The notes under the pieces are model-generated. The model was not told where the DNA came from and searched no databases. It saw only the letters and a program-made list of their open reading frames with translations. The translations under genes were made by a program, and so were the position numbers. A stretch of DNA of 64,000 bases from Gymnopus androsaceus JB14 (lineage: Eukaryota > Basidiomycota > Agaricomycetes > Agaricales > Omphalotaceae), in the NCBI GenBank assembly GCA_009733575.1, contig ML769680.1, positions 1 to 64,000 on the forward strand, given 5' to 3'. Shown piece by piece: positions 34,299-62,771 of this stretch (the first letter of the stretch is position 1; each line of letters starts with the position of its first letter).

Positions 34299-34305
34299 AC
34301 ATCCC

Positions 34306-34720
34306 CAAGTACCAGGGCAGGTTTTCTCAAGAAAGTCATTTTATACTTAAGTATACTTAAGTACAACTTGAGTATTTCCTTTAGTTGAAGACAAGAAAAA
34401 AAACTTTCTATTGAGCATTAGTACTTTCAGATTTTCTAAGTACGTTCTAAGTAAGTCCTTGAGAAAATAGATATCTGCTTTACTTGAGGATTAGATAGTA
34501 ATACTTTGAAATTTCAAATCTTCTAAGTACATACTAAGTAAGAACTCAAGAAAAGTAATTACAATGCAAGAAATCGACTTAAGCAAAACTATAAATAAAG
34601 TAACTTAGAAATACTTAAAAAGTAAAACTCACATATGTACTTAAGTAGATGAACAAGTAAGAAAGTGACAAAGTAAAGATACCAATAGAGTAAGAAGACA
34701 AAATCGCGAATGTTGAGAAA
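34306..34720. repeat. Left terminal and subterminal repeats of the KDZ element
   Basis: The terminal inverted repeat is followed by about 400 bp dense in ACTTAAGTA, TACTTGAG and CTAAGTA motifs in both orientations. Similar motifs fill 50605-51044. Clustered short motifs at both ends are the usual form of transposase-binding regions. No ORF. Confidence 0.7.
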
Positions 34721-34844
34721 TATTTTGCCTACACTAAAGCAAAGTAAAGGTTGTATGTACTCACAAGGGCCTTAGGGAGAAATATTATAGTAAGTAATAG
34801 TTGCAAGTAAGAATATTGAATCTCGCACCTTCTTCTCTTTGGAA

Positions 34845-37800
34845 CTAGGGTTCGCGTACATTCCGCCCATGTCTGAGCCAAGACCTGCAATTAGCATTAA
34901 TTAGACCCCAAAAGAAAATTAATATGAGACCACTTACCACATCTGCTCGTACAATATCTAAATCACTCATCCACTTGAGCTGATCTTCACGGAACTCCAC
35001 AACCAGACCCGCCAGGTGCACCTCAAAATTCACAAAGGCTGGATGTCCTACTTCTGTGAATTTTGCCCGAGCAAGGCCTCCTAGGTGTCAAAGATAGCAG
35101 CTTGCCATGTAGCGCGCGCACGCAAGGCAGCAACCTCTGAAGAGGTTCGAGCAAGTTCATCAATGCAGACCTCACTCGCTGGCAGATGTCCAGATGCGGG
35201 ACATGGAGCTACAGTGGAGAATGTACCGTTGAAGCTCCACATGCCGCTGCTCAAACTGTTTCGAGCCACCTGGTACATGTTGGCTTCCGCGACGGTACCA
35301 CGAAATTGCATTGCCTAAAGAGATAAAGAGATTGGACTTGGACTTGGCAGGAACAGAAAGATAGTGCACCTTCCGTCTCCCATTCATCCGTGTTGTTCAA
35401 GGTCCGAGGCTGCCCGCTGTCCAAGCGACCATAGCGAGCCTTGCTTGTCCTCGCTTACTAAAATATCAGGTTAGTGGACCAGTGTTGAAGAGCCGCTCTC
35501 CGACGCACCACAGCTCACGTTTGTCGATTCTTTAGGGGCAGGTTGACGTCTTGGCCTGTACATTGCCCAGGACGAGGTTCTGCAGAAAGAAGACCGTAAG
35601 CTCGCTGTCAGGAAAAAAAAGATAAGTAGACGATACGTTGGCGTTTAGTAAGCTGTGTCGCTGTCCTGAGCTCGACCTTTCCCAGCATGTCCACAAATAC
35701 CTGTTGGCAGGTCTTCTCCCAACTCCGTCTCAGCTAGCCTCTTGTGCGCCTCGCCAACAGTCCATAAAATTCCCTCGCGTCGCTTTGAGTCTCCCACCCT
35801 TCGTTTGTGATTGACGTCCTTCTTGAAGGTATCAGAAGCGGCGAGGTGTGGATACATTGACGATGAGTCCTTCAGAGCCTGGAGTGAAATCAAAGCCTGG
35901 CGGTACTCATTATATGCCACGAATTCCTATATCTCGTGCGATGATAGCCTTCATGATTGATTTGCCCAGTCCGTGTCCGAAGCTTCTCTGAGTCTACGTT
36001 CTTGTCCTTATAGTTGAGAAGTGATAGTAGTCGGTTAACGGTATGCTTGAGGCTTGAAATGGTGCTGTGAAGTTGTGCTTCTCGTAAACGAACTTCCTGG
36101 TCAGCCAATGCTGCAAGGCCGTACTTGCATCGCTCGTTCACTGACAGGTTCGAAGGGAGCCCCAAGGAGAAATCTTCCGGACCTCTGTCTGATAGGTTGT
36201 GCGCAAACAACTCCGGTGGTAGATCTGCCATCACGACAGCCTGGTGCATGCGGAATTCCTTGAGGACCTGAGTTAGTCGGTCACGGAGCTCCTCAATATG
36301 TAGCTCATCTCGTTCAGTATAGAAATGTCGTAGGACGGCTACAGATTCATTTATATCTGCCCTATTGCATCTGTTAGCCATCAAGATATTTTCTAGTCCA
36401 AGTCAGCACTCACCGTATATTCTCCGCTTCAACTGCTTTGGACCAGTACGCCTCGAGTGTAACAGTCATTTCATTCTCCCCCAGGAACATATTTGCTGGA
36501 ACACAGCCTTCCTCCCTCGACAAGTTAACCAGCAGCTGTCGCACCGTCGGAATCTGAGTATGACGGCGGTGATACACACTAGTCCATAGCTTGGGGTGCT
36601 TGGGGTCCTGCTTTGGACGGCGAGGGGCGCGGGACCAGCTAGAAACAGCGTCCTTATGGGCACGACTAAGCAACTCCAATTCATCTCGAGCTTCTTGGTA
36701 CATGATCCGCGCCTCCTGCAACTGTCTTGCTACAGTGTCATCTATGATTCGTCTCGCAGTCAAAATACAAGTCTAGACAGCAAATCAGCGACTCACAGCT
36801 GTTTATAAACTTCTTGTGATTCCAGTCGTTGATGTGTGCGATGATAGTATCTTCACGGTTGGCGTCGTTCATCTGGCGTGTGTAACCACCGACCTGATTA
36901 AACTCAATCCATAACTGCTCGATGCTCTCGCCATGGGTGTTTGCATTGCACCAATGGTACGGTACATTGTACTTCTCCCGACAGTCAAACTCGCGGTGTT
37001 TCATCATGTGAACAACCGGAACGCCACGTTCAACTTGACGTACGAATTGTCGATGAGAACGCAAATATGGGAAGCATGCAAAGCGAATTTGAACATTGGG
37101 GGCGAGGTCACATTGAGCGTCGTAGGTGTGTTTGTGCCGAATCATATCGCGACTATCGAGTTTCACATCATCGCCATAACCGTACAGAGTGTAGGCGCGC
37201 GCGTAGGAGGCGTCTACGTGTGCTTGACTAGTGAACTACTCAGTGAGAGCAAGAATCTAGTAACTTATTGACTCACCTCTCCGCACTATACATATCAGTT
37301 GCTGCCAAAATGAAAACATGGCTACACGCTGTGCTAACCACTCCAACTGTCTTCTTTGGGACGACTGTTCGCAGAGCTTGATTGTGTTGTCGGTTGATGA
37401 CCTTTATATGGCCGCATTCTGACGCTGTTGACTACACCAACTGAGTCTGTGAATCAAACCAAAACGCTCCAATTACTCACCACATAGGCAGATTTTTTCG
37501 TGCTTGCCAGAAACTCCTTGTAGGGCTGTACAGGTGGAAAGTAAGAGTTTCCCCTGAACATCGACTTGTCATCCGCTCCGCTGTTCTTGTGGAATTGACT
37601 GAGTTTGAAGTTGCCATCGCTCGCTGTGCTCATCATGATTAAATGGCTGATACGCAACGACATAACAGTAAGTGAAAGAACCCTAGTGCACAGGAATGGC
37701 ATACCGTAAGTGTAATGGAGTTTTCTCCCAATCGCCGAGCATATTAGTTGCTGGATCTGGGCATATAGGGCAATAATTGATCATCGCCTCTGGCGGACGA

Positions 37801-38877
37801 TGCGGAAGGTATCGCTTATTCAAATTGAAAATCCCGCCAAGGCGTATCTGTGCTTTGAAGTACCTCCATGCGCGTGCTGCAAGCATGAACGGCTGGTAAG
37901 GATCCTGGGATAGTTAAGGTCGATACGTTAGAACTGTGGTATATAAGTACATGAGCATAACTTACATTAACTTGGTCCGTGTGGACATTATCCGTGAGAC
38001 GACGCAGGCTCAGAAAGTAGTCGTAAGCCGCAATCTTGCCCTGCAGACTCTGTAGGTCATATTCTCGCATCACTGTAAAGGTGAACGCGGTCTCCGGCTC
38101 TGCTACGGAAGCTGGGAAAAGCCGAGCTCGCATGAGCTGCTCGACACGAGAACCCCGGCCACAGTTACAAAACGAAATATATGTACCGTGAACCCCATTA
38201 GAGTGTGTGACTGTGAATTTCACCGGTTTGGGCTCGTCAAGTGTAGGACATGCTTTGCCATGATGTCCGAGCTGAACAGCGTAGCGCTCGCGTAAAGTGC
38301 TGATATCGCTTCGAACAAAGAATGAACCTTTCCAGACACGAGCCCAATGCCAAGGATTACTGAGATGGTTACTGATCCAACAATCCTGGCACGAGAGCTC
38401 GTACTCTTGACAGTCCTGGCATTGCACAGTTCTAACACCTTTCCCACAAGAACAAGGTGTTTCAATGTCGGGGTCGTATTCATGCATTATGAGGAGCATG
38501 ATTAGGAGCGTCGCGCTGTCAACAAAGTCCTGCGAAGGAGGTTTATGAGGTCGTTTGGGTTTACTGTGATTGCCGGGACTGTCCTGCGGGGGGTTGTTGC
38601 ATTGGGCTTCCGAGCTGGTAGCTATCGGAGGTGAAGATATCGCAGCAGGGACAGGTTTGGGAGGCCCGCTAGTAGTGACTCGGAACACTGTTTGCATGCT
38701 AGATCGTGTATTATCGACAAACTCGATGCGGTCTTGATCAAAGCATAAACGCTTGACCGAGAGGCCTTCGTTGGGAGCAGTGGAGAGCTGTGAGAGGGCT
38801 GCACCTCGCTTGAGACCCCTCGGCATGATGGTTGGGACAGAAACAGATGGGACAGCAAGAAAGGTACATGGCGCCAC
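34845..38877 (-). CDS. KDZ transposase with CxC2-like cysteine cluster
   Basis: Many exons on the minus strand. Exon 1 (to about 37966) starts at MAPCTF or at MPRGLKRG (about 38825). It carries the CxC2-like cluster (CSCGKGVRTVQCQDCQEYELSCQDCWISNHLSNPWHW), then LGHHGKACP, CNCG and FPASVAEPETAFTFTVM. Later exons show YCPICPDPATNM, TASDGNFKLSQF, VVSTACSHVFI with DMYSAE, and a D-x2-C/H/E series: TYDAQCDL, VPVVHMMKHREFDCREKY, HGESIEQLW and NREDTIIAHINDWNHKK. The C terminus includes YNEYRQALISLQAL and VGDSKRREGILW. These are hallmarks of Kyakuja-Dileera-Zisupton transposases. Candidate catalytic residues are the Asp of SDGNF, the Asp of ATDMYSAE and the Glu of GESIE. I did not resolve every exon; the catalytic stretch is readable without stops. 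Confidence 0.85.
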
Positions 38878-39211
38878 ACTACATGAATTTGTTGAGCTAC
38901 TGGAATCAGACGAACAATGAAATAACGCACCAAAGTAAGACTCGAGGCCACCAAAAGTAGTTATTGTCCTTAGTTTAACGTCATCTCGGACGATCTGAAC
39001 CTGATTCCCAATCTGGTGGTCAAAGCAGTTCAGTCAACTCTTATTGTTAACAGAAAACCGAGATATTTTTCATTTACAAATACAATGAATTATGGTCCAC
39101 CCATATATTGCTATATACATTGAAGTCCTATAAGAAAATAAGTTACAAAAAAATGATTTAGCGATACAAATGTGCTTAATCGACCAAGAAATACATTATC
39201 TACACAAGAAT
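38878..39211. other. Intergenic spacer between KDZ transposase and Spt5-like gene
   Basis: About 330 bp, AT-rich, no ORF. It holds the 3' end region of the Spt5-like gene and the 5' region of the transposase gene; both are read on the minus strand, Spt5-like first. Confidence 0.5.
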
Positions 39212-42200
39212 CTATTCTCCTAAAAGAGCCCTCTCGTCGTCTGTAATCTGCATTCCAAGTAGCTGCTTTTCAAGGATGTGCTGTAGCTGCGTTATTGCAA
39301 TGGCACCCTTCCCTGCCTTATCCTCATCCGGCATCATAGGGACATGTGCACAGACGAGTTGCGATACTCGTAGCAAAGGACCATCCACAGGGATTTCCTG
39401 AAAACGTCTTGTTTTGATTTTCTTTCCCTTCTCCTGGCATTCATGTCGAACAGGCTTAAGAACAATATCGTCAGCTGCACCCCAAAATACAGCGCGTCCC
39501 AGTTTTCCAGCATGCTCTCCGCTGCACACTAAGAACAACTTTGAGCTATATGAATTAGCTGCAGTATGAGAGCACTTTGAGGGGTCGAGATGTTGGGCAG
39601 TGATGATGGTCTTTATGGGAGCTCGACCTTTGGGCTTTACCAGGTATACTGCTTCGTTGAGACCATCCTGCGAAGAGATGACCACTTCCACATCATCATC
39701 TTGCCCCCGTAAAGCTACGAAAACCTTCCCCCGAGGCAATACCTTCGTAATTTCGGGATCGTCGATCCAATCCGTCCATGGGGGTGGGGTTCCAGCTCTG
39801 AGTGTGAGTGGAGCCCCCCCTTGTGTGAACGTAGCATTTTCTAGTCGATTGCCAAAACTTGGGATTGCCAGTCGCTCACGGGCAGCATCCTTTGCCCTTT
39901 CCTCGTCTTCCAACTTTTTCCGCGCCTCACTCAGCCGCTCATTCTGAATCTGCATGATCCTTTCGGGATGGCCATACACATGACGGATCTCCGCCGGAGA
40001 GTGGGTTGGAATGTAACCTGGCTTGAATTGAAAGTAAGATGCGGCATCAAGTGAATAGGCGAGGAAACAGTCATTATCGCGTCGACGAATACGATCAAAG
40101 TCAAATAAAGTATTGGGCGATGTGGAAGGGGCGTCGAAACGCACAAGTATACCAATGCCGCTTTTCATTGACGAGTTTTTGACAACATCCATAACACGTC
40201 CAAGAGAACCCTTGTGCATCTGAGCAAAGTTGTCGTTCTCAACGCCAACAACTTTGATTTCCGTATTGGCCCAAGGTATACGTCCCGTCGATGTATCGAT
40301 AAGAGAGTTGCTAGTACCGGGCTGGCCCATAGTCGGCAGTTCATTGCGAGGATGATAGGGTTCATGAGCGAGATGGATTTGGGGCATTAAGGAAAGATTT
40401 TTGAGGCTGTTGGCGTGGAAAGGATGTGTAAGATCATCACTGCCGTCGAACTTGACAGCAATAACATCGTCAACCGCAACCACCAGCCCTTCACGAGCAA
40501 CGCCTGAGTCTTGTCGAACTTCAACTCTCGACCCCACTTGCATGACCTTGATCAAGAATCGAAACGGTATAAACCGTACTCCCAAAACAGTGAGATCGTC
40601 GTCGAGACTCGGAGCATTGGCCTGGTTGATGAAGGCGACGTCGCACCCTGAGGAGTGAACGCACTCTATCCAGCCTTCAGAACCGCTCGTAATCTCATCG
40701 TCAATCTCTGCATCTCGAGTAAAAGGCCCATAGTGAAGAGCCAGTTGTACTCTTTCACCGTGATCAAAGAACCAGGAGCTGGGCAAAGGCCATCGACTAC
40801 TGATCAAGTCAGGTAGACATTTCAGCCACTGACTAAGATCCTTGGCGAGAATAGTAGTGGCCTCCTGCACGTCGACATGATTGAGAACGACCAATGCGAT
40901 ACCGCTGTCAGTGACAGTTTGACCGCTCATTGTATAGACCTTGGATAAGTGATTACACGTCCTCGGACGTTCGCATTGATAACATTGGATCTTCGAACAT
41001 GGTATGGAATTACGGACAGCGAATGAAAGGATGGACTCAGAGCCCTGATACACCTTTGCCCTACGAGGCTGCGCAGCTCGACGCTTTCCATTGACTGGCA
41101 AAGCCGATACTATTGTCGATGCGTGTTGTGACGATCCCTCTTCAGACTGCAAGTGCGATACTTTGGGTCTCTTACGGGGTCGCTCTGTAAGAGCCAGTCG
41201 AGGCAGGAATCCCACAAGTATCTGATTATTTCGGTCAAAGTCCAGACCATTAGTGTATTCGGTGTCCAAAACTACACCAATGTCACCTCGGTACCGTCCC
41301 TTCTTGGCCAATATCCAAGTTCGCGGTTGCGGAATATTTCGGAGTCGCCTCTGTTCAATGAGCTGAGATGCATCAACAACACGGCGATGTATGGGCATCA
41401 GCAAGTGCACGTCCTTTGAAGGGGGAAGCACGATGGTATCAGATGGGTGCAAAACGATTGGCTTGCGAGGATATTTGAAACCATAGATGGTTCGAAAGTA
41501 GGAGGCCGCTTGCGTATGCATCTGTAGCATGGAAGTTACTCGGATATAAAGGCCTCCCGGAAGCATGGAAGGAAAAGCGCCTCGGAGACCTGGAGGAGCC
41601 TTTCCGTTGCGGGAGTCACGCTGGATACGCTGTACGATGTCGGATTCTGTCCCTTGCTTTTAATGTTATCAGAACAGAATATAAACCGAAATATTAATTC
41701 CGTACCTGACAGCGAACGTAAAATACTTCACAATCTTCCAACATGGCAGCGTGAGCAACAAGAGCGGCCAGGCCCTCTAGCTCGTCGCGTTCCTCAGAGG
41801 TTGGATCATCCTCATCATCTAACAGGAGGGGTTCCAGAGAAATGTTGACCTTCGGATCGACCTCCTGCTCTGCAACTACCTGCTCCGCTGGCTTCATTTT
41901 TTCTAGTTGGGCCAATAACATCCGCGCAGCTTCAGCGTCGTCTGGCTCTATTTGCATGATACGGATCCTCATGGCGTGCCACTCCTCACCAACTTGAAGT
42001 TCGTCCAAGGACGTTTTGACTTCATCGCCGGAGGGCGGTTTCTCGTCGGTCATGTAGCTGTGCAGAAGATTCCATGCACGAGCTGCAGGAGAAGTCGAGG
42101 GAGGCAAGTCGGAAGTGATTTTATCGAGCAGGAAGTCGACCACTACTTGTGGAACGGAGGGCGGAGGTACATCGGAGGCTGCAATGGGTGCAGGGGAATT

Positions 42201-42407
42201 GCGGGAGTCGGTACTTTGAGAAGGCGGGGCTGGAGTGGGGGGTTGTTGAAGCGATTTTTCAGTTTCAAAAGTCAACCAACGTGTAATTACTTCGTCGAGG
42301 CGATCAACATGGTCTTTTGGGCGGAGAGGGACCGATTCTGCCTGTTGCCGAAGCCGCTCCTCAGAGTCTTCATCGGAGGAATGCTCGAAGTCGAGGGTAT
42401 CATCCAC
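39212..42407 (-). CDS. Spt5-like protein (acidic N terminus, NGN and KOW domains)
   Basis: Two exons joined by an intron near 41658-41706, about 1000 residues. The N terminus is acidic (DDTLDFEHSSDEDSEERL). The NGN domain is split by the intron: DCEVFYVRCQ | QGTESDIVQRIQ, then PGGLYIRVTSMLQMHTQAASYFRTIYGF. Next is the first KOW: PRTWILAKKGRYRGDIGVVLDTE, ending VGFLPRL. Weaker KOW-like units follow: GSRVEVRQDSGVAREGLVVAVDD, AQMHKGSLGRVMDVV and SGEHAGKLGRAVFWG. This is the order of Spt5, the elongation factor that clamps RNA polymerase II with Spt4. The usual C-terminal repeat region is absent and the KOWs are diverged, so it is a specialised paralogue rather than the housekeeping gene. It lies inside the KDZ element next to the transposase, on the same strand. 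Both exons are open. Confidence 0.8.
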
Positions 42408-42810
42408 CTCCGCCTGATCTAATACAAGACTTGCGGCCTATAATCCTGAGTTACTTAGTAGATGTGGGTCAAAGTATCGTGGACACGCACGAATATACCT
42501 ACTTCGGCTATCAGCTCTCTGCTCATCCTAAGGAAACAAAGCCTAAAGAAAGAACGCGTCAGCGCAGGTATTCCAAGGATTAGAGACTCAGAAAACGGAG
42601 AAGCGTAGTCCTTCTCTGCCTGTGAGCTTCTTACAGTCGTTCTGACGACTATTCTGACCGTCTTCGGGTCTTTTTACGCTCAAGGAGGCTCAAGGAATTA
42701 TTTAAATAGTTAAACTACGACTACGACGATGTTACATACGGATATTCGACCTTAAGACTTACCTTGATGGACGTTCGGGAAGTAGAGCAAAAATGATTAG
42801 TCAGCATTTG

Positions 42811-42914
42811 AGCGCCAGACTTCTTCCGGCCGTAAAAAAATTCTATGACTCACCTCGGGTACATGACCGAGGTGAGTCATAGAATTTTTTTACGGCCGGA
42901 AGAACTCTGGCGCT
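42811..42914. repeat. 104-bp near-perfect palindrome (48-bp arms, 8-nt spacer)
   Basis: Left arm 42811-42858 and right arm 42867-42914 are inverted copies with one mismatch; the spacer is GTACATGA. Arms start AGCGCCAGA and include TTCCGGCCGTAAAAAAATTC. It sits between the Spt5-like gene (minus) and the plus-strand genes, near the switch point of transcription direction in the element. Seen directly; function unknown. Confidence 0.9.
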
Positions 42915-43855
42915 TCTGATTGCTGCACAGCTTTTTGCATCTTTTCCTCAACGTTCGTCGTAAAGACCGTCCATCGTGCTGAAGTCTTTTTTCATTGCTG
43001 TTCACGTCGCCACTAGTAACCCGTGCATCGTGCGGGCGTTGTCGGAGCACTTGGGGACTGGTCCTAAAGGTACGTTGCTAAAATCTCATCATCGGTGACG
43101 GTCTAACATTACTCACTGTCCAGCAACGTTGTAAACGTTCAAGCCCTCGAGCCCTCGAGTCCGTCATCCGAGTCCGTCATCCCTGGACGCAGTCCGCTGT
43201 GCACTCTCGCTTATTTTCCTTACTGCTCACCGTTATCGGATCTTCCTCTTCGTGCGGCTGGGTTAGCGGAATTCTGAATCACTAAGGTCCGTGCTTGGAG
43301 AATTACTGTTTTCCATCTTTCTAACGCCGCTGTGTAGTCGGTATCTCCTCGTCGTCTTTGTAACTCGAAGATCATTGCTGCCGCAATTCTTCCTGCCTGG
43401 CTGGATGGGGTATGAATCTTTACTACTATAACTTATGATATTGCTACGTTGCTATGCTGTCCTGGTTTTGTAGTGTTGTAGTCTAGTGATACGTAGTGTC
43501 TCAAAACCTTTGGTATCGCTTAGTCCAATGTAGTCCAATGCAAAAGAATTTGTCTCCAAAAAATATGCCCTACAAAGAAGTCGAACAGAAATGGCAAGTC
43601 AAAGCTGACGAGACAATAGACATGGCCAATAGGGCCTCACAATGGCCAGTGGTCCGCAATGACCTAAAACTACAAGTCGGTGGAACAATGAAATTATCCT
43701 TGGCTGGCGCACTTATAGATGATGCGTCAACGTCGACCGTGGACCTTTCACTCGTTAGCTCTGCTACTTGATCACATTAATTTCGAAGGTACGTGGTATG
43801 CTTCGCTTTCCTTGTATAGTAACTGAAGTATCGCATAGGCTTCCTTCTTCACATC
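42915..43855 (+). other. Leader region with a small possible ORF (43496-43771)
   Basis: This stretch contains the promoter side of the plus-strand genes and short direct repeats (AGCCCTCG, GAGTCCGTCATCC, 43140-43185). A 91-codon frame at 43496-43771 (MSQNLWYRLVQCS...) has no recognisable domain and may be chance. No firm gene. Confidence 0.3.
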
Positions 43856-44462
43856 ATGCCTAAAGCTAGCACTCCAAAAACGCGAAGCTCGCAAGCGACA
43901 TCCTTCTCCAGTGCAGCCACAAAGACTGCACAGCGTACGGCGAACAATGCCAGAATCTCCAAACTCTTGTTTGAAATCCGTCGTGCTGCTGGACTGCCCA
44001 AGTCTTTTAGCCGACCCACTCTCAATCATGGAGAGTATGCCGCAAGCAAATCTCGTATATATATGGGGGAGAGTGATAATGTCAACAGCATCCATCACCC
44101 TCGATTTAATCAACTTGGCCAACTTTACCGACAGGTGTGTATTGGTTCAATCGTGTCCTTTGAATTTGAGTAACTGATCTCTCACCTAGATTTATCGTGC
44201 ACAGACTTTTGTGCGCTTGGCGTGGGATGTCGAGCAGATTCCTAGGCATGTCCTAGAAGCAAACAACGAGCTAATTGACCTCCTCACTGCTCGGGAAATG
44301 CTCAAACGTGTCCCGAGAGCTTCTTCATCGTCCAAGGCAAAGCAATCCTCAAATACTTCTACAGCCACGTCATTTCCTTCCTCCAGCACTACCGCTTCTG
44401 GTAGCTCTAGTTTGCCAATGGTCATCACAGACGATGACGAATCCGACATTGAAATCTGTTGA
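43856..44462 (+). CDS. Unknown protein inside the KDZ element (two exons)
   Basis: Exons 43856-44134 and 44190-44462 join in frame with GT-AG ends, for about 183 codons. The N terminus is S/T/K-rich (MPKASTPKTRSSQATS). The core reads GLPKSFSRPTLNHGEYAASKSRIYMGE...HHPRFNQLGQLYRQ | IYRAQTFVRLAWDVEQIP. The C terminus is Ser-rich and then acidic (ITDDDESDIEIC). I do not recognise the family; composition suggests a nuclear protein. The frame is open. Confidence 0.55.
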
Positions 44463-45299
44463 TTTTCAGGCCCAAGACCAAACTATCAACGCATACTGGT
44501 TGAGCGGGCTACGATGAACTCTTCTCCTGCCACATCTGACAAAGGAGATGCCGCCTCCAAGACTCAGCGAGACAGGATCATTGCGGACGCGATGTCCAGT
44601 TCGCCTGTCCAGTAGTGAACAAGACGAAAGTCGAGCAGACTCATTCGATCGAAAAGCTGTCGCTCGCACCACCATTACTTTAGTATGTTTTCACTGAGGT
44701 AAAAACAGTTTCGTGAACCATTGTCTTCCTGTACGCTAACTGGCTGTCCAGACCCACAGTACCATCCAGAGCACACGCGCACTTGAGGTCAAGCTGGGTG
44801 TAGCATCAGGCACTAGATGTTGCCAGGCTTTTGCAAAAGATTGCGATAATTGTCGTAGCCTGTTTTGCAAAAGATCCCGATAACTTATAAGACTTATTGG
44901 GAATGGCCTCGGGGTGCTGCTGCCGGATTTTTGGCATTGCGGCAGTGTAGTTCTTTTGCCAAATATTTGTTAAATGCTTTTTGCACCAATGAAATCAGTG
45001 ATATTGATTCACAAATATTTCTTAAATATGTTTGCTTTATAATATTGTAATAAATGCCATTATTGTTTTGCCAAATATTTGTTAAATCCATTTTGTACTC
45101 AAATATTAAAATTAAATTGATTACTTAGGTGCCTATGGTCCTTCCGAGGTTCATTTACCAAATATTTGGTAATAGCCAAAAGAAATCAATTGTCTGGGTG
45201 CCTACAATCCTTTGTAGATTGATTTGGCAAATATTTGGTATTAAATCAATGTGAAAAAAACAGCAGTTAGGTGCTTGTGGGTGCTTGTGGGCGCTTATT

Positions 45300-46080
45300 T
45301 GTGGAAAAAAACAGGGTTGATCATGGGGTCCCATAAATCTCCATAAAATGCTCAAAATAATGAAAATATATTAATCATGGGTCTCATAAATGCCAAAAAA
45401 AAACTGAAAAATAATAAAAATATTCAGGAGGCAGGGTTAGGTGTACTAGCACATGATCATACTATTGGGCGCTTATGGGCGCTTATTTTAAGAAAAAAAA
45501 AAAAAAGTTGATCATGGGGTCCCATAAATCCCCAAAAAATACTCAAAATAATGAAAATATGTTGATCATGGGGTCCCATAAATGCCAAAAAAATACTGAG
45601 AAATAACAAAATATATTCAGGGGGCAGGGTAAGGTGCACTGGCACATGATTCATATTGTTGGGTGCTTATGGGTGCTTATTCTACAAAAAAAAAAAAAGG
45701 TTGATCATGGGTCCCATAAATCCCCAAAAAACACTCAAAAATAATCAAAATATGTTGATCATGGGGTCCCAGTAAATGCCGAAAAAATACTGCAAAATAA
45801 TAAAAATACTCAGGGGGCATGGTTAGGTGCACTGGCACATGATCCATATTGTTGGGCACTTATGGGTGCTTATTTTCCATTAAAAAATGATCATTGGGTC
45901 CCATAAATCACAAAAAAATGCTGAAAATATTCAGGGGTGGGGCTAGGTACACTAGCACATGATTCATATTGTTGGGCACTTATAGGCATTTATTTTCTGA
46001 AAAACAGTCAATCATTACATTCCATAAATCCATAAAAATTCATGAAGAATTCATGCAAAATCCTAAAAATATTCAAGGGT
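45300..46080. repeat. AT-rich tandem array, ~190-bp unit
   Basis: About four degenerate units of roughly 190 bp. Each carries TTGATCATGGGGTCCCATAA (often twice), a CAAAATAATGAAAATAT stretch, a TTCAGGGGGCAGGGTTAGGT block and TTGGGCGCTTATGGG followed by an A/T run. GGGTCCC and GATC palindromes recur. It is internal to the 2.77-kb element. Confidence 0.8.
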
Positions 46081-46649
46081 GGGGTTACATGAATTAGTAA
46101 TTGATTTATACATAGTGCAGACAACAAAATTGATGTCACCCCCTAATTCAGTGGGCTATTCAGTAGCCCATTCAGTAGGTCACAGAGGTCATATCAATTT
46201 TGTCATCCACTGTATATATTGCTGGGTGCTTATGGGCAATTATTTTCAGCAGAAAAGATTATTGGGCCCCATGAATCCTTAAACAATGTTGAGATACTAA
46301 GAATATTAGGAGGTTTAGGTACACTAGTATCTAATTTATAGATATATCTACTTAGCTATTAGTATTAGTTAATGAAATGAATGCCAAGTTCATGTTTTCA
46401 GAATTCTGTGCCTGATCCTACATAAGAAATTTAAATCTCATAAGCCTGATTATACAGACAATTGAACTGTATTAGAAATTCTACTTTCCATGTTATTAAC
46501 ATGTTTATGCTACAGCACTACTGTATGCACAGCCTTGGCTGCTAGATCATATTATATCATTTGTGCTGATTACTTTGACACTGGATGAGTAACCACCATG
46601 CACCAGCATAAGCCCACCTTCACCCTAGCATTTATGGTACTAATGTTAA

Positions 46650-46960
46650 ATAGATAACTAGCAGTAGTAGCTCTGAGTTACTACTACTAGTTACTCGCCC
46701 TACAGTAACTCCAAGTTATTAGTACTAGTATGGTAGTAACTCCAAGTTACTACAATACTAGTACTAGTAGTGGTAGCTCTGAGTTACTAATAGTATTAAT
46801 TACTAGTACTAATAGCTAGTACCAGTAACTCCGAGTTATTAGTACTAGTATAGTGGTAACTCAGAGTTACTACTAGTATTAATTACTAGTACTAATAGCT
46901 AGTACCAGTAACTCCGAGTTATCAGTACTACTATAGTAGTGACTTGGAGTTAACTTGGTA
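46650..46960. repeat. Short palindromic repeat cluster (ACTAGT / AACTCCGAGTTA)
   Basis: Repeated units built of TAGTAACTC-CRAGTTACTA and AGTACTAGTA, each near-palindromic, over about 300 bp. It could fold into several hairpins. No coding capacity. Confidence 0.8.
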
Positions 46961-48194
46961 TGAGTTTCTCTGGGTAATGGTTTACAGTTTCTCCTTGACC
47001 CAACCACCAGGTGACAGTTGATTCACAGAATCCCATATAGAACCTTCAGTGCTTAGGCACCTATACAAACCAATAATGACATCATAACCAAAAAAAACTC
47101 GAAATTTTTGTGATATGACATCATATTCATTCTTACTAAAACTGAATACCGTTGTGTGTGTAAACTCATTTCCTGAAACTTTATGCAATGTTGATGGCTT
47201 TTTGGGGATTAAGAAACCCAATGATGTACTTAATAAGCACCCAAAAGTGGGGTGCATATAATGTGTTGGTATGCTGGATAAAGACGCAATGATCACGTGT
47301 ACTCATGGTCCAAACTTAGGTGACAGACCCAGTTGTAGCTATGACATATGTGATGTATTTTATTTTATTTTATTTCATTTCATTTTAGGTGTGTCATGGT
47401 TGAAAGTTAGGCAATGGGGCTAAATTTGACTGTGACATCACGGTAAATAGGTGACACAAAAATCCGGCAGCAGCACCCCGAGGCCATTCCCAATAAGTCT
47501 TATAAGTTATCAGGATCTTTTGCAAAACGGGCTACGACACTTATCGGGATTTTTTGCATTAAGCTGGCAGAATCAGCTGCATCAGGTTCATTCATAACAT
47601 TGGATCGTTTAAGGAGTGAATTGGGCCTGCTGGGAATAAAGGCAAACTCTAGCATTGAACGGTACCTTGCGCTCTCAGCGACTTGGAGGCCGATTCGATG
47701 GGATACACCATTCAGGGTGACCACTAATGCGATCATGGCTCTGAAGCTATCCGATGTTACTGTGAAGGATTGGAAAATCCACGCGCCTCACATATATGAG
47801 AATCATCTTTAATAACTACTTCATATTGTATCTATATAGCGCAATGTAAAGCAATTCAATATTACATGTCTGTATTAATGGTATCCAATAGATAGTGATC
47901 TTTGTCATGCAGAAATTCAAGCTTCGACATGTGGCTCGAAATGAGCTAGAAATTTACGCTTTGACCGTGATTTGTGCGGTCCGAAATGACCATAAACTAG
48001 TCCATTGTGAGCTGACCCTGAATATGTCGCGGCTAGACCACCATTGTAAATTGCAATGGATGTGGCCCGGGATCCCATTGTTTGTTATCCTGCCTCTCAA
48101 TTAATTTGATAAGCACTGACTTGCATGTGGCCAGGTTTTTCACATTGCGCAAGTTCAACCTTCTTACACTAGTACCACCACCTTCACGATCGCA

Positions 48195-50605
48195 ATGAAC
48201 GGAACACAGAACCCAGACGGCGACACTCCTGCCAACACAATCTTGACCAACGCCCAAAAAAACAATGCAGCGGACGCAGAGCCTACACTGAAATTGCAGC
48301 AAAGTGCAAATGAAGGAGGGTCAAACAACAACGCAGGTTCAGTCTCAGTAAGTTGATGACATATTGTGCGAAGGTCTCCATCTAATAAACATCTTGTAGG
48401 GAAAACCTCGCTACAGGTACTCCAACCCCCAGAAAGATATACTGCAACGTCTTCTTCCTGAGTACAAAAACCACAGTAGCAAGCGCAAACAGGCTTTTGA
48501 CAACATCTACAGCAAGCATCTGATGAGTGACGCGTCTTTCGCCAAACCAGCGAGTATGACAGTTGAGGAATGGAAGAGGGTGTGTTTTTTTTGCCTCCAA
48601 ATCTAATAAAAAGCTCAACATCTACAATTTAGACTCTTATCAAATGGTTCGACAACAACGTCAAGAAAAGTGGTCAAACTGTGAAAAGAGATGTTGAAGC
48701 TCAGTCAAAGCATGTCAGCACGGCAGACGAGAATACACTCGTTCAGAACCATATTCCGCATCCTGCCAACCCTCCATCAACCAATCAGTCAGACACTTTA
48801 TCCTGGGCCAAACTTTGCGACCTGGCCAAGTTCTTTAACGAGCTGATGTCGGGCAATATGGATATCAAGTCGGGAAGAATGGTGTTTGCGGGTAGCCGGG
48901 GCATGACAGAGGAGGAAATCAGCCAAGACTGGAACGAGCTGAGCGTGGATGAACGAAACAAGTGGGAAAAATGTGCCGCCGCTGAGTGCAATATTCAACA
49001 GTAAGCTTATCCATGTCAGGGATTGTTCCTTTGGTAACCACTCTGTTTTCTTAGCAATCGAGAGCGTTCCGTGTCTTCGCTTCCGAAGCTGCTTCAAGGC
49101 TGTCTGCAGTTCGGACACATTGGACATGGGGAAATTGCCACGGTCATTGTTTTTGACAATGGCTTTGATACAGAAAGAAGAAAGATTGCCAGTCATGGGT
49201 AACATATTCCCTTGCCATCTTCTTCGCTATACTCATCCGTTGCTCCATAGCATCTTTGCCAGTTCGGACATCAAGTGCTCCGCCACAATCAAGGAAGTTG
49301 TGAAAGACCCCTATGTATTATACCGCGACCTTTCAGATCATTTGAACGAGAGTCTCAAAGACACCAGTGAGTTGATATAAAATCTTTGCATGCATTGATA
49401 TTCACGCTTTAGGTTTAGTTCTTAACGACCTCAAGCTAAGGACCGAGATACCCGTTGACAGCGAAGGCCTTGCCCGGTTCCCCACAATATCCAATCTTGA
49501 CGATGTGTCAAGATCGCAGCTAAGACAGGTCTATGAGGATTTCATGACCGCAATCTGGTGTAAGTCTTCCGTTGATCCCTTGAGATATTTCGCTTATTGT
49601 TATAATGTAGTTCAAGCTGGCTATACAGGCTCTGTAGATTACAATGCCATCGAAACCAGCCCGAATGATTACTACGAACCCACTCTACTTCCGACTCACA
49701 TGAAACTCAAGAGTGCTGCAAACACAGGGGGATGGTTCCAGGATCTATTCAAATATCTCATGGCAAACTACTGCAGCTCAGGGAGAGTTTTTGTGTTGAA
49801 GAAACCCAGTCCGGTGGCAGATGTCGAGATTGCTCCACTGCCGATTCCTGCGCCTGTTCATTTGGGTACCCCAGAGCCAAAGACTGTCTCTTCGATGACC
49901 GTGGATGATGCTCCTGTAGCTCATTTGCATACACCAAAGCCAGAGGTTGTATCTACGAAGGTGGCGGATGACAATTTGCACACACCGCTCGCTGCCACTG
50001 AGCAGAAAACCCCCGAGGCTCCCGCTCTCCCTATTCCATCGCCAAACGCACCCAACGCAGCTCATCCAATGACCCCTTTAATGGATACGGCGATGGCCTC
50101 ACCTTCAGCTACTGCCGTCGATCTCTCACTGGATGAGAATAATGGAGCTCCCAAAAATATACACAACCATGAAGATGACGATGAAGATTGGATGGACGCG
50201 CCTGAGGAAACTGACCCGCCCATCGCTGAAACGACGGTCACACCTGCGGACGCTGATACCAATGTCAGCATGAACCACACAGACGCCGGCACCTCCAGTG
50301 GTCCAGATCCCGAGGGCGCTGTTGGCACAGACATTACAAAGACAAATGAGAAGAAGGGTGCGAAGAAAATGCGGGGGCGCAAGGCAGGAAAGCAGAAACA
50401 GCAACCACTTGTGAACCAGAATGTCTCTTCGCCTGCGACAACGGGGGGTAATGACGAGCCAAAAAACCTTGAAGAGGGTGTTCAGGCTGAACAAGTGGAC
50501 GTCACGCACATGCCCCTTCATCGCAGCAAGCGAAAAATCGCGGAGACCGAAGCAGACGGTGATGGAACGGATGGTATGCAGAGAAAGCATCGCAAAAAGC
50601 AGTGA
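48195..50605 (+). CDS. Unknown nuclear-type protein with weak HMG-box-like segment
   Basis: A multi-exon plus-strand gene within the KDZ element. It starts MNGTQNPDGDTPANT and ends HRSKRKIAETEADGDGTDGMQRKHRKKQ. Introns near 49002-49053, 49200-49249, 49371-49411 and 49560-49610 splice in frame; others lie near 48350 and 48580. The N-terminal part has GKPRYRYSNPQKDILQRLL and PASMTVEEWKRTLIKWFDNNV. A later segment, GMTEEEISQDWNELSVDERNKWEKCAAAE, resembles the second half of an HMG box. The long C-terminal half is low complexity (P, T, acidic), with a basic KKMRGRKAGKQKQQ stretch suited to nuclear import. No stop breaks the model. Family unknown. Confidence 0.6.
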
Positions 50606-51044
50606 TGCTTAAGTACTTTTCTTTTTTTCTTGAGTACTTCCTCAAGTACTTTGTACAATGTTCTCAGTATCTTGCAATGTTTTCTTTATGATTTTTTCTT
50701 CATACTTTCTTTACTATGCTTGGGTACTTTCTCTACTTACATACTTTCTTAAGTACTTTCTGAGCAGTTTACTCAAGTATAGGACTTATGACTTCTTCGT
50801 CATACTTTCTTTACTATTTCTTGGGTACTTTCTACTTAGATACCTTCTCAAGTACTTTCTGAATAATAAAAGACTTAAGTATATCAAAGAATCTTAAGTA
50901 AACGATCTGAGTAATGATCACTTAAGTAAACTTTCAGAGTAAAGTAAAGTCATATGCTCAAAGGTGAAGAAGTTTGCTTGAGGACATACTTGAGAAGTTC
51001 TCAAGTAAAAACGACTTTCTTAAGAAAACGTGCCCTAGATTTAC
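50606..51044. repeat. Right subterminal and terminal repeats of the KDZ element
   Basis: About 440 bp made of recurring CTTAAGTACTTTCT, CTCAAGTACTTT and TTGGGTACTTTCT motifs, ending in the inverted terminus whose complement reads AGGGCACGTTTTCTTAAGAA. It mirrors the left end at 34306-34720. Confidence 0.75.
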
Positions 51045-51051
51045 ACATCCC

Positions 51052-57875: not shown

Positions 57876-60800
57876 ATGCCACCCAGGCCAGACCCTCCAC
57901 CACTACGAACTCGACAGGAGATAAAATCATCACAACAAGCACCACCACCAGTAACTTGACAATGTTCCATCGCATCGGAACAAGCCAGCTCATCAAGTAG
58001 CAAAGCTGTAATGTCACAGCAGAGATCAGCTCCATTACCTCCCACAGACGACACTGTTCCTTGTAAAGGACACCCACACATCTTTGACATCAACATATTA
58101 GTTGATAGGTACAAGAACTGAACCACTGGAAAGTGGAGCCAGTGCAACAAACAACATTGCCTAAATCGATACGACATACCTTGGACAGGTAAATTAGCAA
58201 ATTTTGCAAAACCCATCGCGAAAGATCAGGAGGCAATTATCAGAACCCACCTACGACACATTGCTGACGACGACGAAGAAGAGGATACTGAAGCACCTGC
58301 TGCTCAGCCTATAGCATCATCCTCACAACAGCATACTCCCGCTCCATCCCAGTCACCTGCACCAAAATGCGAACCAACCCCACCTACACCTCCACAACCA
58401 TCTCCACAGGGCACTGCACTCCAATTTCCATATTCAAATACAGAACCACCTTCTCCACACAGATCCCCATCGCCATCAGATCCCGGATCACCAGGCGCGT
58501 TAATTGCTGATTCCGACAACGACAACGACGAAATGTCAAAAGCAAACAAAGCCTTCAATAAGGTTACAACCTTAAAATCGGACAGATCAAATTGGGACAC
58601 ATGGAAAACTTGAGTGGAATTCGCAGCCAGATCTATCGGCTATCAGCATTATTTGGAATGGAATCCGCAACCTGATCTTGCCCAAGGATCAAATGATGAG
58701 CACAGGGGAAAGGATAGTGATTTGCTAAATGCAATCATTGGCAGATTATCGGATGGAATATTCCGAAGGTATAGGCACTACAGCAACACAAAGCAGTTGT
58801 GGGAAAATTTACTCGCTGATTATGATTCTAAAAACGCTCTTACTGAATCATTTTTACAAAGACAACCTCACACCATGCGATGCATGGACCCATCCAAGGT
58901 CAATAAACATTTGGACGATATGATCAGCATCCACAATGACCTCACTACTAGGGGAATCGATATCAACGATGATATATTCGTCAACACCATTATGTCCTCT
59001 GTCCCCGACACCTTCAAAGCTACGATAAACGCATTGGCTGTTTTCTCCGCTAAATCCGACAAGAAGCTCAATCCTGCGGAGCTCATCTCTACCATTCGTG
59101 CTGAATCAATGGTAAACCAAATACGACATGATCACAAGAAGGAATTGGCAAACTATGCCAGTAACAGGGGAAGAGGAGGTTTTCGAGGTCAGGGAAACTC
59201 CTTCAGGAGAAATTCCCGAGGCAGAGGCAGAGGCCGTGGAGGATCGACGAGTCATCAGGACTCCGTTTGTTACAACTGCGGAGGTAAAGGTCACTTTGGA
59301 TATCAATGTCCATCGGAGAAACGCAGTCAGGCCAATGAGGCCAAGGAGACGAAGGCTCCTAAAGAGAAGCAGAAGAAGAAGTCAGAGGGAAACTGGAGAG
59401 ATAGGCCGAAGAACAGCAAAGTGGCATCCTCATCCATGATTGAGAAAGTACCAGAGTCATCATAGGCAGCAATTGAAATTCCCACTAAGCATGGGAATCT
59501 TGTTTTCGATTTTTCCGAAATAGCTGATAAATTCGAATTAGCTCTTTCATCGCCGAGCAACAACAGATGTCAGAAATACAATTCTGATGCAGTGCAAAAC
59601 ATCAAAGTCAACAGTCCGCCACCTCTTACTCTTAATGGTGAAGAGGGGGAAGAAGTATACGTCGATGCTTATGCTGCAGCCCACAGTTATGGAGCAATTC
59701 TTTTTGACTCCGGATGCTCTACCCACATGACGCCACTCACCAACGAACTCAGGAATCAACGAGAAATTCCAACATGAGTCATCCAGGCTGCTAACACGGA
59801 AACCTTCACGGCAAACATCTCAGGCACACTCCATCTGGAACTCCCAACATTTGAACAAAAGATAAGAATGTTAAAGCTCCCTAACACCCTTCTATGTCCA
59901 GACACTCCCAACACACTCGTATCACTGGGAAAACTCGACAATGATGGTTACACCATCCACACTCCAAATGGTAAAATGACGATCAGAGATTGCCAGGGGA
60001 ATCTCGTGGGAGTTATCCCAAAGATTAATGGACTATACCAGATCCCATCACGGGAACACGCTTATTCAACTAAGATCGGCAGATTGGTATCTCTTTACGA
60101 GGCACACTGCATCTTAGGTCACCTCAACTATGCTTACGTGAAGCATATGTTCTGAGACAACCAGGTTCAAGGAATCGGATTGGATCTGAAGCAAATGGAC
60201 GAACCAGAATACCGCGCTTGTATGCTTGGGAAAGCATCCAGGTATCCTATCGCTCAGGTGCAATCATCTCCGTGTGCGGAAAATTTTGGAGACGTCTTCC
60301 ACATGGATGTGTGGGGACCAGCACAAGTCAGGACGGTAAACCATTGCACTTACACGCTGACTTTAGTTGACGAAGCAACTGATTGGTTGGAGGAACCCCA
60401 AATGAAGTCGAAGGACGAGTCATTCGCACAGTACGTGGTTCTCCAAACAGGTCTCCAAACACAATACGGCACAACTGTTAAAGTTCTCCACTCTGATTGA
60501 GGGGGAGAATTTCTCAGTAACGAATTCACGGCATATCTGGAACGTATTGGGACACGACGATGTCTCACGGTACACAACACCCCGGAACACAATGGTATAG
60601 CGGAACGCGCACATTGAATGTTGCTGAACACAGTTCAAAGTCTTTTGATCTCATCAGGACTCCCAAAATGGCTTTGGGGATTCATGATGAAATATGCGGT
60701 ATATGTTTGGAACAGAATGCCGAAGAAAGCCATTGGAATGGCCACTCCATACGAGAAACGGTTTGGTATTAAACCGGACATTACTAATCTTCAAATCTTC

Positions 60801-62771
60801 AGCAGTATTGTTTACGTTAAACGAGAAAAGGAACCTGGTAAATTGGAACCACAGGCCAGGAAGGACGCTGGATAGGACTCAAACCCGAATCGAATTGTCA
60901 CTACATCTATTGGCCAACACGTCACACTGTCACAACAGAGAGGAACGTAGTTTTCTCTGACAGGCAGATCCAACCCATTGAAGGGGAGGATGGAAATTTG
61001 GGAAATTTAGAAACATTGGTCACCGAGTTGGAACAGCCTGTCATACCAGTTCCAGAAGAAATCGCCGAACCAATTGCACCAGACAAAGTATCTGGGAAAC
61101 GAGTCAGACAACCTACCAAGAAGATCAGGGATGTCATTGAAGGACTTGGAGAAGGAAGTGATGAGTTGCAACATCTTACCACATCTCTAGGTCAGGTAAC
61201 ATCAGAAATCAAATCTGATCCTTTATCTGTTGCAGAAGCTATGCAATGACCTGACAGCTCCAAATGGTACAATGCCATGAAGGACGAAATCTCCAGACTC
61301 CAGGAGCGTGGAACCTATACAATTGTCACTCCACCTCCAGATGCCAATATTCTCACATCCAAATGGGTCTATTGAACCAAGAAGGATGAACGAGGTCACA
61401 TTACAGGACACCAAGCTCGTCTTGTTGTACGTGGATTTAATTAGATCCCAGACGTTGACTACTTCCCAGACAAAACCTTCGCATCTGTCGCGAAACTTGC
61501 ATCAGCCCGTGCTATACTCAGCATTGGAGCTGAAAGAGCATGATTATTCACCAAATGGATGTGAAATTAGCTTACCTTTACGGGAAATTGGACGACAACG
61601 AGCGCATTTTTATGAAGGCACCTCCAGGCATTGATATAGGGGTAAAACCAGGTCAAACTTTACGGCTTAAACTCGCACTTTACGGACTTAAACAAGCTGG
61701 TCAACGATGGTATATGCGATTCAGGGAGATCATGACCCAACTGGGGTTTAAATGGTCTGATTTTGATCACGCTGTTTTCTATTGCACTAATCCCTTTACC
61801 ATCATTTTCATACATGTTGACAACATGACATTGGTTACCAAAACCCTGGCCATCATGGAGAAATTGAAGAAAGATATTGGGGCTATAATCGAAGTTGTTG
61901 ATTCCGGAGAAATCCATTGGCTACTTGGGATCGAGATCCAAAGATCTCTCCATAATAGGATGATTCACCTATCCCAGCGGTCATACATTGATGCCATACT
62001 CTCTCGCTATGGATTCTCGGATATAAAGCCACTTTCTATTCCCTTTGATCCCCACATCCACCTCCCGAAAGACCAATCACCCAAAACGGTTGAGGATATC
62101 GCTTTTATGCGCGACAAACCCTACAGAGAGGCCCTTGGCACTCTCCAGTACTTATCCGTTGCTACGAGACCTGACATCACATATGCAGTCTCCATCCTTG
62201 CTCGCTTTTCACAAAACCCCGGCATCACTCATTGGAATGGTGTACACCGTGTCTACACCTATCTCAAATACACCCGAGACTTTTGGCTCAGTACGAGCAA
62301 CCAGGAGACAGTCCAAGGTTACACGGATGCAGATGGTATGTCCCAAGAGGATCGACATGCTATTTCCGGGTACGTTTTTATGTTGACAGAGCAGTATCTT
62401 GGTCGTCGAGATGACAGGATACCATTTCTTTATCCACCATGGAAGCCGAGTATATCGCTTTGACCCATGCGGCGAAGGAAGCGATCTGGCTTAGGAATCT
62501 TTTGTCGGAAATCTTTGGTCCAATTACTCATGCAATCCCTATCATGTCAGACAATCAGTCCGCCATTGCATTGGCAAAGGATGATCGTTTTCACACCAGG
62601 ACCAAACACATCAATATCTGATACCACTTCATCTGCTACGTCATTGAGGAAGGTAAAATTCGTCTTACTTACTGCCCTACCAAAAACATGACGGCAGACA
62701 TCTTCACCAAAGCCTTACCTTTGATGAAAGCCAAACACTTCGCAGCATCCATGGGATTAGCAAAGGTTTGA
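57876..62771 (+). pseudogene. Copia-3 Gag-Pol polyprotein, several TGA stops and frameshifts
   Basis: The frame opens at 57876 (MPPRPDPPPLRTRQ). A leader domain with HIFDIN...KWSQCNKQHCLNRYDIP parallels the leader ORF of Copia-2, and an acidic/Pro-rich stretch follows. Gag (MSKANKAFNKVTTLK at 58533, UBN2-like) is followed by zinc knuckle CYNCGGKGHFGYQC, protease FDSGCSTHMTPLT, integrase FHMDVWGPAQV and NTPEHNGIAERAH, and RT HVDNMTLV, where the second catalytic Asp of the YxDD box is Asn. RNase H ends with MEAEYIALTHAAKEAIWL and ADIFTKALPLMKAKHFAASMG. Stops include TGA at KTxVEF (58611), PTxVIQ, MFxDN, HSDxGGEF, RAHxMLL and AMQxPDSS, and TAG at ESSxAAIE. Frames shift near 60880, 61530 and 62390. 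Confidence 0.9.

What the first reader, a model, noticed from the sequence alone, without database searches (positions are those of the whole stretch)
34306..51044. 16.7-kb KDZ transposon carrying an Spt5-like gene and other companion genes
A TSD (ACATCCC), inverted termini, and mirror-image subterminal CTTAAGTA-type arrays bound one unit inserted in Copia-2; the related Copia-3 shows the unbroken site. Inside are a CxC2-KDZ transposase, an Spt5-like NGN/KOW protein, and plus-strand genes for unknown, probably nuclear proteins. KDZ elements are known in fungi. A defined element in which an RNA-polymerase elongation factor paralogue travels next to the transposase could mean the element controls transcription through itself or its target chromatin. 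The co-mobility and role are inference.
Basis: partly seen in the sequence, partly recalled or inferred. Interest (0 to 1): 0.92.

Follow-up and report, generated by a model that had tools for sequence, protein, structure and literature searches.

The report
Fungal jumping gene carrying Spt5 relative
A 16.7-kb DNA transposon in a leaf-litter mushroom carries, beside its transposase, its own version of a general RNA-polymerase elongation factor (Spt5), and the same pairing recurs in distant relatives of the element in that genome, so the element may bring along a factor that helps it be transcribed where the host would silence it.

Summary
Window 34306-51044 is one element inserted in a Copia element: 7-bp TSD, inverted repeats, subterminal arrays, and an empty site at 61128. 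The genome is Gymnopus androsaceus JB14. Two further large copies have both ends and 7-bp TSDs: C374 with KDZ and Spt5-like, C290 with neither. The element encodes a CxC2-KDZ transposase (C-terminal frame broken here) and an intact 1066-aa Spt5 paralogue, confirmed by profile chain and fold. Of 55 Spt5-like loci found, 26 lie within 10 kb of a KDZ/CxC2 match (about 2.5 expected), 25 of 26 on the transposase's 5' side; an orphan gene 3 is head-to-head with Spt5-like at 11 of 11 loci that have both. Seven of seven family proteins covering it carry a Cys3His motif in the KOW1-Linker1 domain; host Spt5 lacks it. No TET/JBP match, the known KDZ companion, passes cut-off in the genome. Most likely role, inferred: an element-dedicated elongation/anti-silencing factor. 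No report of this was seen in the search rows shown; the founding KDZ paper could not be read.

The parts
34299..34305 (.). left copy of 7-bp target site duplication ACATCCC
   Evidence: sequence; single copy in empty site
34306..34313 (+). left tip CAAGTACC, outside the inverted repeat, conserved
   Evidence: 8 of 8 left ends
34314..34342 (+). left inverted repeat arm
   Evidence: pair I6, 90% complementary
34314..34913 (.). left subterminal array of CTTAAGTA-type boxes (10 boxes)
35890..38826 (-). KDZ transposase gene, CxC2 + KDZ domains, 7 exons in my model, 870 aa; C-terminal frame differs from other copies
39212..42526 (-). Spt5-like gene, 3 exons (42526-42503, 42437-41706, 41656-39212), 1066 aa, intact
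40805..41347 (-). KOW1-Linker1 domain of the Spt5-like protein
40949..40984 (-). Cys-x2-Cys-x5-Cys-x-His motif (putative zinc knuckle) inside KOW1-L1
   Evidence: 7 of 7 family proteins that cover the segment; not in host Spt5
40397..40768 (-). KOW2-KOW3 region
40055..40279 (-). KOW5-like domain
43856..44462 (+). gene 3, orphan 183-aa protein, head-to-head with the Spt5-like gene
   Evidence: gene model; linked loci
44810..47578 (.). nested insertion with 118-bp inverted repeats and 7-bp TSD GCATCAG (44803-44809, 47579-47585), absent in C53, C216 and C279
48195..50605 (+). gene 4, 717-aa orphan protein, 6 exons in my model
   Evidence: homologues
50437..51036 (.). right subterminal array (15 boxes)
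51008..51036 (-). right inverted repeat arm
51037..51044 (-). right tip AGATTTAC (GTAAATCT on minus)
   Evidence: 7 of 9 right ends identical
51045..51051 (.). right copy of TSD ACATCCC
60509..61725 (-). related Copia copy with the empty target site (single ACATCCC ending at 61128)

Best explanation
A CxC2-KDZ (Kyakuja-Dileera-Zisupton) DNA transposon with 7-bp TSDs that carries a conserved cassette: transposase, an Spt5 paralogue and the orphan gene 3 (and in many copies gene 4). Shown: the insertion, the termini, further copies, the Spt5 homology and fold, and the recurrence and geometry of the cassette. Inferred: the Spt5-like protein is expressed from the element, binds Pol II through its NGN with host Spt4, and uses its KOW barrels to keep Pol II moving (or initiating) through the long, intron-rich element despite host silencing at CpG, so that transposase is made. 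It would thus be an anti-silencing companion filling the place that TET/JBP dioxygenases fill in other KDZ elements. The Cys3His insertion in the DNA-clamp domain and the gene-3 protein are the candidates for giving it preference for the element's own DNA or chromatin.
For: Termini, TSD, empty sites. Gene set in a second TSD-bounded copy, C374. 26 of 55 Spt5-like loci within 10 kb of KDZ/CxC2, 25 of 26 on the 5' side; after dropping the nine contigs of the window's own family 19 of 46, 18 of 19 on the 5' side. Gene 3: 14 of 15 loci within 10 kb of KDZ/CxC2 or Spt5-like, the 15th (C216) in the same element at a contig edge; head-to-head with Spt5-like at 11 of 11, four of them the window's family and seven diverged. 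Long open frames in diverged members (888 aa at C44, 30% identical). Spt5 identity: window family to the C727 relative hhalign 98.5%, E 3e-15; that relative to host Spt5 27% over 300 aa, E 3e-17; fold matches. Copies decay by CpG C>T, as methylated repeats do (C308: 132 of 156 C>T/G>A changes at CpG, CpG being 720 of 3800 C). No TET/JBP over cut-off in the genome.
Against: No expression, binding or transposition data. 29 of 55 Spt5-like loci have no listed KDZ/CxC2 match within 10 kb (some are near contig ends, and the KDZ search scored 150 of 335 candidates). One linked locus (C410) lies on the 3' side. In one search every other locus of the window's own family has stop codons in its Spt5-like matches, so within that family only the window copy is seen intact. 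C290 has termini and TSD but neither KDZ nor Spt5-like, so the gene is not needed in cis. Among close copies non-CpG changes in the Spt5-like gene are 61 nonsynonymous to 39 synonymous: purifying selection is at most weakly visible there. Gene 4 is within 20 kb of KDZ or Spt5-like at 10 of 18 loci only. Linkage is shown in one genome only.
Confidence: 0.55

Rival explanations
1. Transposition accessory factor: the Spt5-like protein (with gene 3) works in the transposition reaction, binding the subterminal CTTAAGTA arrays or target chromatin with its KOW/Tudor-like barrels and Cys3His motif, like a second transposon protein, not in transcription.
For: Subterminal arrays at both ends; lower-ranked fold matches to Tudor and SAWADEE chromatin readers; cassette tied to the transposase in fixed geometry.
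Against: The best fold matches are Spt5 chains and KOW1-L1, KOW2-3 and KOW5 keep Spt5 order. Arrays of the same boxes begin also in short elements without the gene (first 40 nt shown).
Confidence: 0.2
2. Interference with host silencing: a decoy Spt5 that titrates Spt4 or a silencing polymerase complex, the reverse of plant SPT5L/KTF1, which serves RNA-directed DNA methylation.
For: Spt5 paralogues serving silencing exist (KTF1; PMC3111484, PMC10229537, starts of abstracts in a search listing only). The element family decays at CpG.
Against: No equivalent pathway was tested here; such a decoy would act on all repeats, not on the element alone.
Confidence: 0.13
3. Passenger: a host Spt5 duplicate captured and carried without function.
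For: C290 and short derivatives lack it; other copies of the window's family have stops in it.
Against: Kept as long open frames at about 30% identity between lineages, with a nearly fixed side relative to KDZ, a fixed head-to-head gene 3 and a Cys3His motif in 7 of 7 proteins covering it.
Confidence: 0.08
4. Chance neighbours or assembly artefact.
For: Draft of 934 contigs.
Against: Two more large TSD-bounded copies, an empty site for C290 at C52 (86%, one unbroken match across the junction), linkage far above expectation.
Confidence: 0.01

Closest known systems
Kyakuja (KDZ superfamily) of Agaricomycotina
   Same: KDZ transposase, 7-bp TSD, 5'-CA start, companion gene beside the transposase (Kojima 2025, PMC12730594; abstract, introduction, sections 3.2 and 4.2 read)
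   Different: Described companion is a TET/JBP dioxygenase, termini 5'-CA..TG-3' without TIRs; here an Spt5 paralogue plus gene 3, inverted repeats 8 nt inside the tips, right tip ending AC, and no TET/JBP over cut-off in the genome. The place within KDZ was not tested by a tree.
KDZ1-3 of Cryptococcus neoformans
   Same: KDZ transposase, 9-11 kb, mobile, TSD 4-8 bp (PMC12810828, passages)
   Different: CxC1 not CxC2; 139-241 bp TIRs; the word Spt5 does not occur in its main text
Host Spt5 (C302, L041)
   Same: NGN/KOW1 homology and KOW1-L1, KOW2-3, KOW5 folds of Spt5
   Different: Element protein too diverged for Pfam NGN and has no Spt5_N match, and carries a Cys3His motif in KOW1-L1
Specialised NusG/Spt5 paralogues: bacterial RfaH, plant SPT5L/KTF1
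   Same: Paralogue of the universal factor given to a subset of transcription units (RfaH mostly recalled; KTF1 from abstract starts in a listing)
   Different: Neither is encoded by a transposon as far as I recall; KTF1 serves silencing

Membership tests
KDZ superfamily DNA transposon | KDZ transposase domain | tested here: met
   PF18758 E 3.6e-28, 4-217 of 217; PF18803 CxC2 E 9e-32
KDZ superfamily DNA transposon | bounded element with TSD and termini; empty site | tested here: met
KDZ superfamily DNA transposon | catalytic acidic residues of the transposase | not tested
   motifs recognised by eye only, from recall
Kyakuja subgroup | 7-bp TSD (Zisupton 8 bp) | tested here: met
   7-bp TSD at 6 of the 7 end pairs whose two flanks I read (C298, C374, C290, C56, C213, C54; by eye); C279 has none. 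C374 also allows 8.
Kyakuja subgroup | 5'-CA..TG-3' termini and no TIR | tested here: not met
   starts CA but ends AC; 29-nt imperfect inverted repeats
Kyakuja subgroup | transposase phylogeny | not tested
Spt5 | homology of NGN/KOW1 to host Spt5 | tested here: met
   hhalign 96.7% E 4e-10 direct; chain through C727
Spt5 | KOW1-L1, KOW2-3, KOW5 folds in order | tested here: met
Spt5 | Pfam NGN above cut-off | tested here: not met
   only KOW at E 0.11; in the genome NGN is over cut-off at 5 places, the host Spt5 and four others. It is therefore called Spt5-like.
Spt5 | binding to Spt4 and RNA polymerase | not testable with these tools
   needs experiment
TET+ KDZ element | TET/JBP gene in the element | tested here: not met
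   one sub-threshold match in the genome, at C425; none in the window

The most novel reading that the evidence does not exclude
KDZ transposons of this lineage carry a dedicated, sequence-recruited elongation factor: a eukaryotic counterpart of RfaH, an Spt5 whose DNA-clamp domain gained a zinc knuckle that, with the gene-3 protein, recognises the element (perhaps its subterminal CTTAAGTA arrays), lets Pol II read through silenced copies, and replaces the TET/JBP demethylases of other KDZ elements.
Probability: 0.15. Interest if true: 0.92.

Novelty: new variant of a known kind. Interest (0 to 1): 0.72.

Why it matters
KDZ elements are known for carrying DNA dioxygenases; an RNA-polymerase elongation factor as the recurrent companion would be a different way for a transposon to meet silencing. 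It offers a natural set of dozens of diverged Spt5 paralogues, with one added motif in the DNA-clamp domain and one constant partner gene, in which to ask how elongation factors acquire template preference. It also warns that genes named as chromatin elongation factors in mushroom genomes may be transposon genes: P0007, whose UniRef name begins 'Chromatin elongation' (cut off in the listing), is the C796 locus beside a CxC2 match.

Tried and rejected
Pfam and PDB sequence search alone do not show the Spt5 link; profile chain and fold do. P0007's weak CagA match (17 residues, below cut-off) and gene 3's weak viral-capsid match (below cut-off) were set aside as chance hits. Gene 4 as an HMG-box protein: only a sub-threshold hint on one exon (E 0.12), not seen with the full protein, so not claimed. 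Gene 3 as an Spt4: it lacks paired cysteines by inspection; not claimed. C279 as a complete copy: both ends 21.2 kb apart but no TSD, taken as a fusion. Cross-species context: the search for related loci found no relative in viral or prokaryote contigs; protein searches gave Gymnopus and two unnamed metagenome proteins for Spt5-like and one Lentinula raphanica relative for gene 4, without gene context. The right end of the C233 element could not be read: the contig ends at 113655. The first linkage count (23 of 41, 23 of 23 on the 5' side) was replaced by the union with the P0007 search, which gave 26 of 55 and 25 of 26. For these counts 139 rows of the KDZ list were typed in (second pieces of loci already entered were left out, and one search did not list all its 161 matches) and all 119 CxC2 rows. 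Whether print already holds this: the rows shown contain no paper that, by title or abstract start, links Spt5 to KDZ; several of these searches matched far more papers than were listed. Iyer 2014, the founding KDZ paper, is not held and could mention it.

Full report
What is there. The window is contig C298 of an 83.27-Mb, 934-contig genome. Proteins of Gymnopus androsaceus JB14 returned lie on contigs of exactly the lengths of C53 (289490), C198 (128227), C290 (86867) and C279 (89238), so the genome is that mushroom. The element occupies 34306-51044, between two copies of ACATCCC, within a Copia element (copia gag domain at 52386-53549, minus). Joining the flanks gives a sequence that aligns to 61725-60509 with one ACATCCC.

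Ends. Each end has an 8-nt tip that is not inverted (CAAGTACC; AGATTTAC), then 29 nt of imperfect inverted repeat, then a dense array of CTTAAGTA-type boxes. The tips are conserved across copies (left 8 of 8, right 7 of 9), so they belong to the element. Of the seven end pairs whose two flanks I read, six have a 7-bp TSD: C298, C374, C290 and three short ones about 1.1 to 1.8 kb long, C56, C213, C54 (by eye); the seventh, C279, has none. C374 also permits an 8-bp reading. C290's insertion has an empty counterpart at C52 (86%, one match across the junction); C374's joined flanks gave no match across the junction elsewhere.

Genes. Transposase: minus, 38826-35890, CxC2 plus a nearly full-length KDZ domain; near its end the frame differs by indels from C374, C279, C308 and C21, 4 of 4 copies aligned; by eye C21 reads on in a longer frame, the others were not translated. 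Spt5-like: minus, 42526-39212, three exons, 1066 aa, intact. Gene 3: plus, 43856-44462, 183 aa. Gene 4: plus, 48195-50605, 717 aa. Between gene 3 and gene 4 sits a later 2.77-kb insertion with 118-bp inverted repeats and its own 7-bp TSD, absent in C53 and C216 and C279. All splice sites are my reading; no transcript was seen.

Is the pairing real? Searches of the genome with the window protein (55 of 103 candidates scored) and with P0007 (42 of 137) give 55 Spt5-like loci. Of these 26 lie within 10 kb of a KDZ or CxC2 match, where at most 4.5% of the genome does (about 2.5 expected; binomial 1e-20 if loci were independent, which copies of one family are not). Leaving out the nine contigs of the window's own family, 19 of 46 are linked (3e-14), 18 of 19 on the transposase's 5' side. 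The exception is C410. The transposase list is incomplete (150 of 335 KDZ candidates scored; 139 rows typed in), so the linkage is a lower bound; equally, 29 loci show no listed transposase near. Gene 3 is stricter: 14 of 15 loci lie within 10 kb of a transposase or Spt5-like match, and the fifteenth, C216, is inside the element at a contig edge. Where both are present gene 3 and Spt5-like are head-to-head, 11 of 11, four in the window's family and seven diverged, although the transposase lies beyond Spt5-like at some loci (window, C233) and beyond gene 3 at others (C188, C311, C106). C233 has the order KDZ, Spt5-like, gene 3, gene 4 with an Spt5-like protein 35% identical over the 168 residues aligned and begins with the same kind of terminus, CAACCACC|AGGGCAGC; its right end is off the contig. 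Gene 4 is within 20 kb of KDZ or Spt5-like at 10 of 18 loci.

Copies. C374 (10.9 kb, TSD) has KDZ and Spt5-like and a shortened right part. C290 (8.7 kb, TSD) keeps the ends and gene 4 with about 5.9 kb of unmatched sequence. C308 and C279 hold the left end, KDZ and Spt5-like (in C308 partial); C53 holds most of Spt5-like, gene 3, gene 4 and the right end; C21 and C216 are cut by contig ends. Every other locus of this family has stop codons within its Spt5-like matches. Copies decay mainly by C>T at CpG: of C>T/G>A changes from window to copy, C374 126 of 156, C279 325 of 421, C308 132 of 156, C53 69 of 101, C21 22 of 29 are at CpG, with CpG 720 of 3800 C. CpG lost in the window but kept in the copy number 27, 30, 8, 47 and 1. 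Against C216, a diverged relative, it is the other way (30 against 66). The window copy is thus among the better preserved. This is what 5mC deamination leaves; methylation itself was not measured.

How it may work. Other KDZ elements carry TET/JBP dioxygenases, proposed to undo methylation silencing (Kojima 2025, PMC12730594: abstract, introduction, sections 3.2 and 4.2 read). In this genome TET/JBP is absent over cut-off (one weak match at C425), while Spt5-like genes are many. I therefore favour an anti-silencing elongation factor: the NGN would bind Pol II with host Spt4, the KOW array would hold template and transcript, and the Cys3His clamp and the gene-3 partner could supply preference for the element. 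Only the anatomy is shown; binding, expression and effect are inferred. A transposition accessory, a decoy against silencing, or a passenger are weighed as rivals; conservation of side, partner and motif across about 30% identity argues against a passenger.

Against prior knowledge. Cargo on KDZ elements is known in kind (TET/JBP), so this is a new variant of a known kind. Among the rows shown no paper links Spt5 to KDZ, but Iyer et al. 2014 is not held and prior mention there cannot be excluded. PMC12810828 and PMC8290104 were seen as passages only; the KTF1 papers only as a search listing.

Noticed in passing
44810-47578: Nested 2.77-kb insertion with 118-bp inverted repeats, internal imperfect tandem repeats and 7-bp TSD GCATCAG; empty in C53, C216 and C279.
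   Followed up: partly
G000 C56, C213, C54 (read); many other contigs carry the same end pattern: Short elements of about 1.1-1.8 kb with the same tip-plus-inverted-repeat termini and 7-bp TSDs, presumably non-autonomous.
   Followed up: partly
[quoted passage not shown] may be ordinary 5mC deamination.
   Followed up: partly
42811-42914: Near-perfect 48-nt inverted repeat with 8-nt spacer upstream of the Spt5-like start, in the Spt5-like/gene 3 intergenic region; also present in C53 and C279.
   Followed up: no
G000 C76:238255 and C335:68675: Two equal-scoring Spt5-like genes with 1081-aa open frames and no listed KDZ match on their contigs: haplotype duplicates or candidate domesticated copies.
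   Followed up: no
35890-36000: Transposase C-terminal exon of the window copy differs in frame from four other copies.
   Followed up: partly
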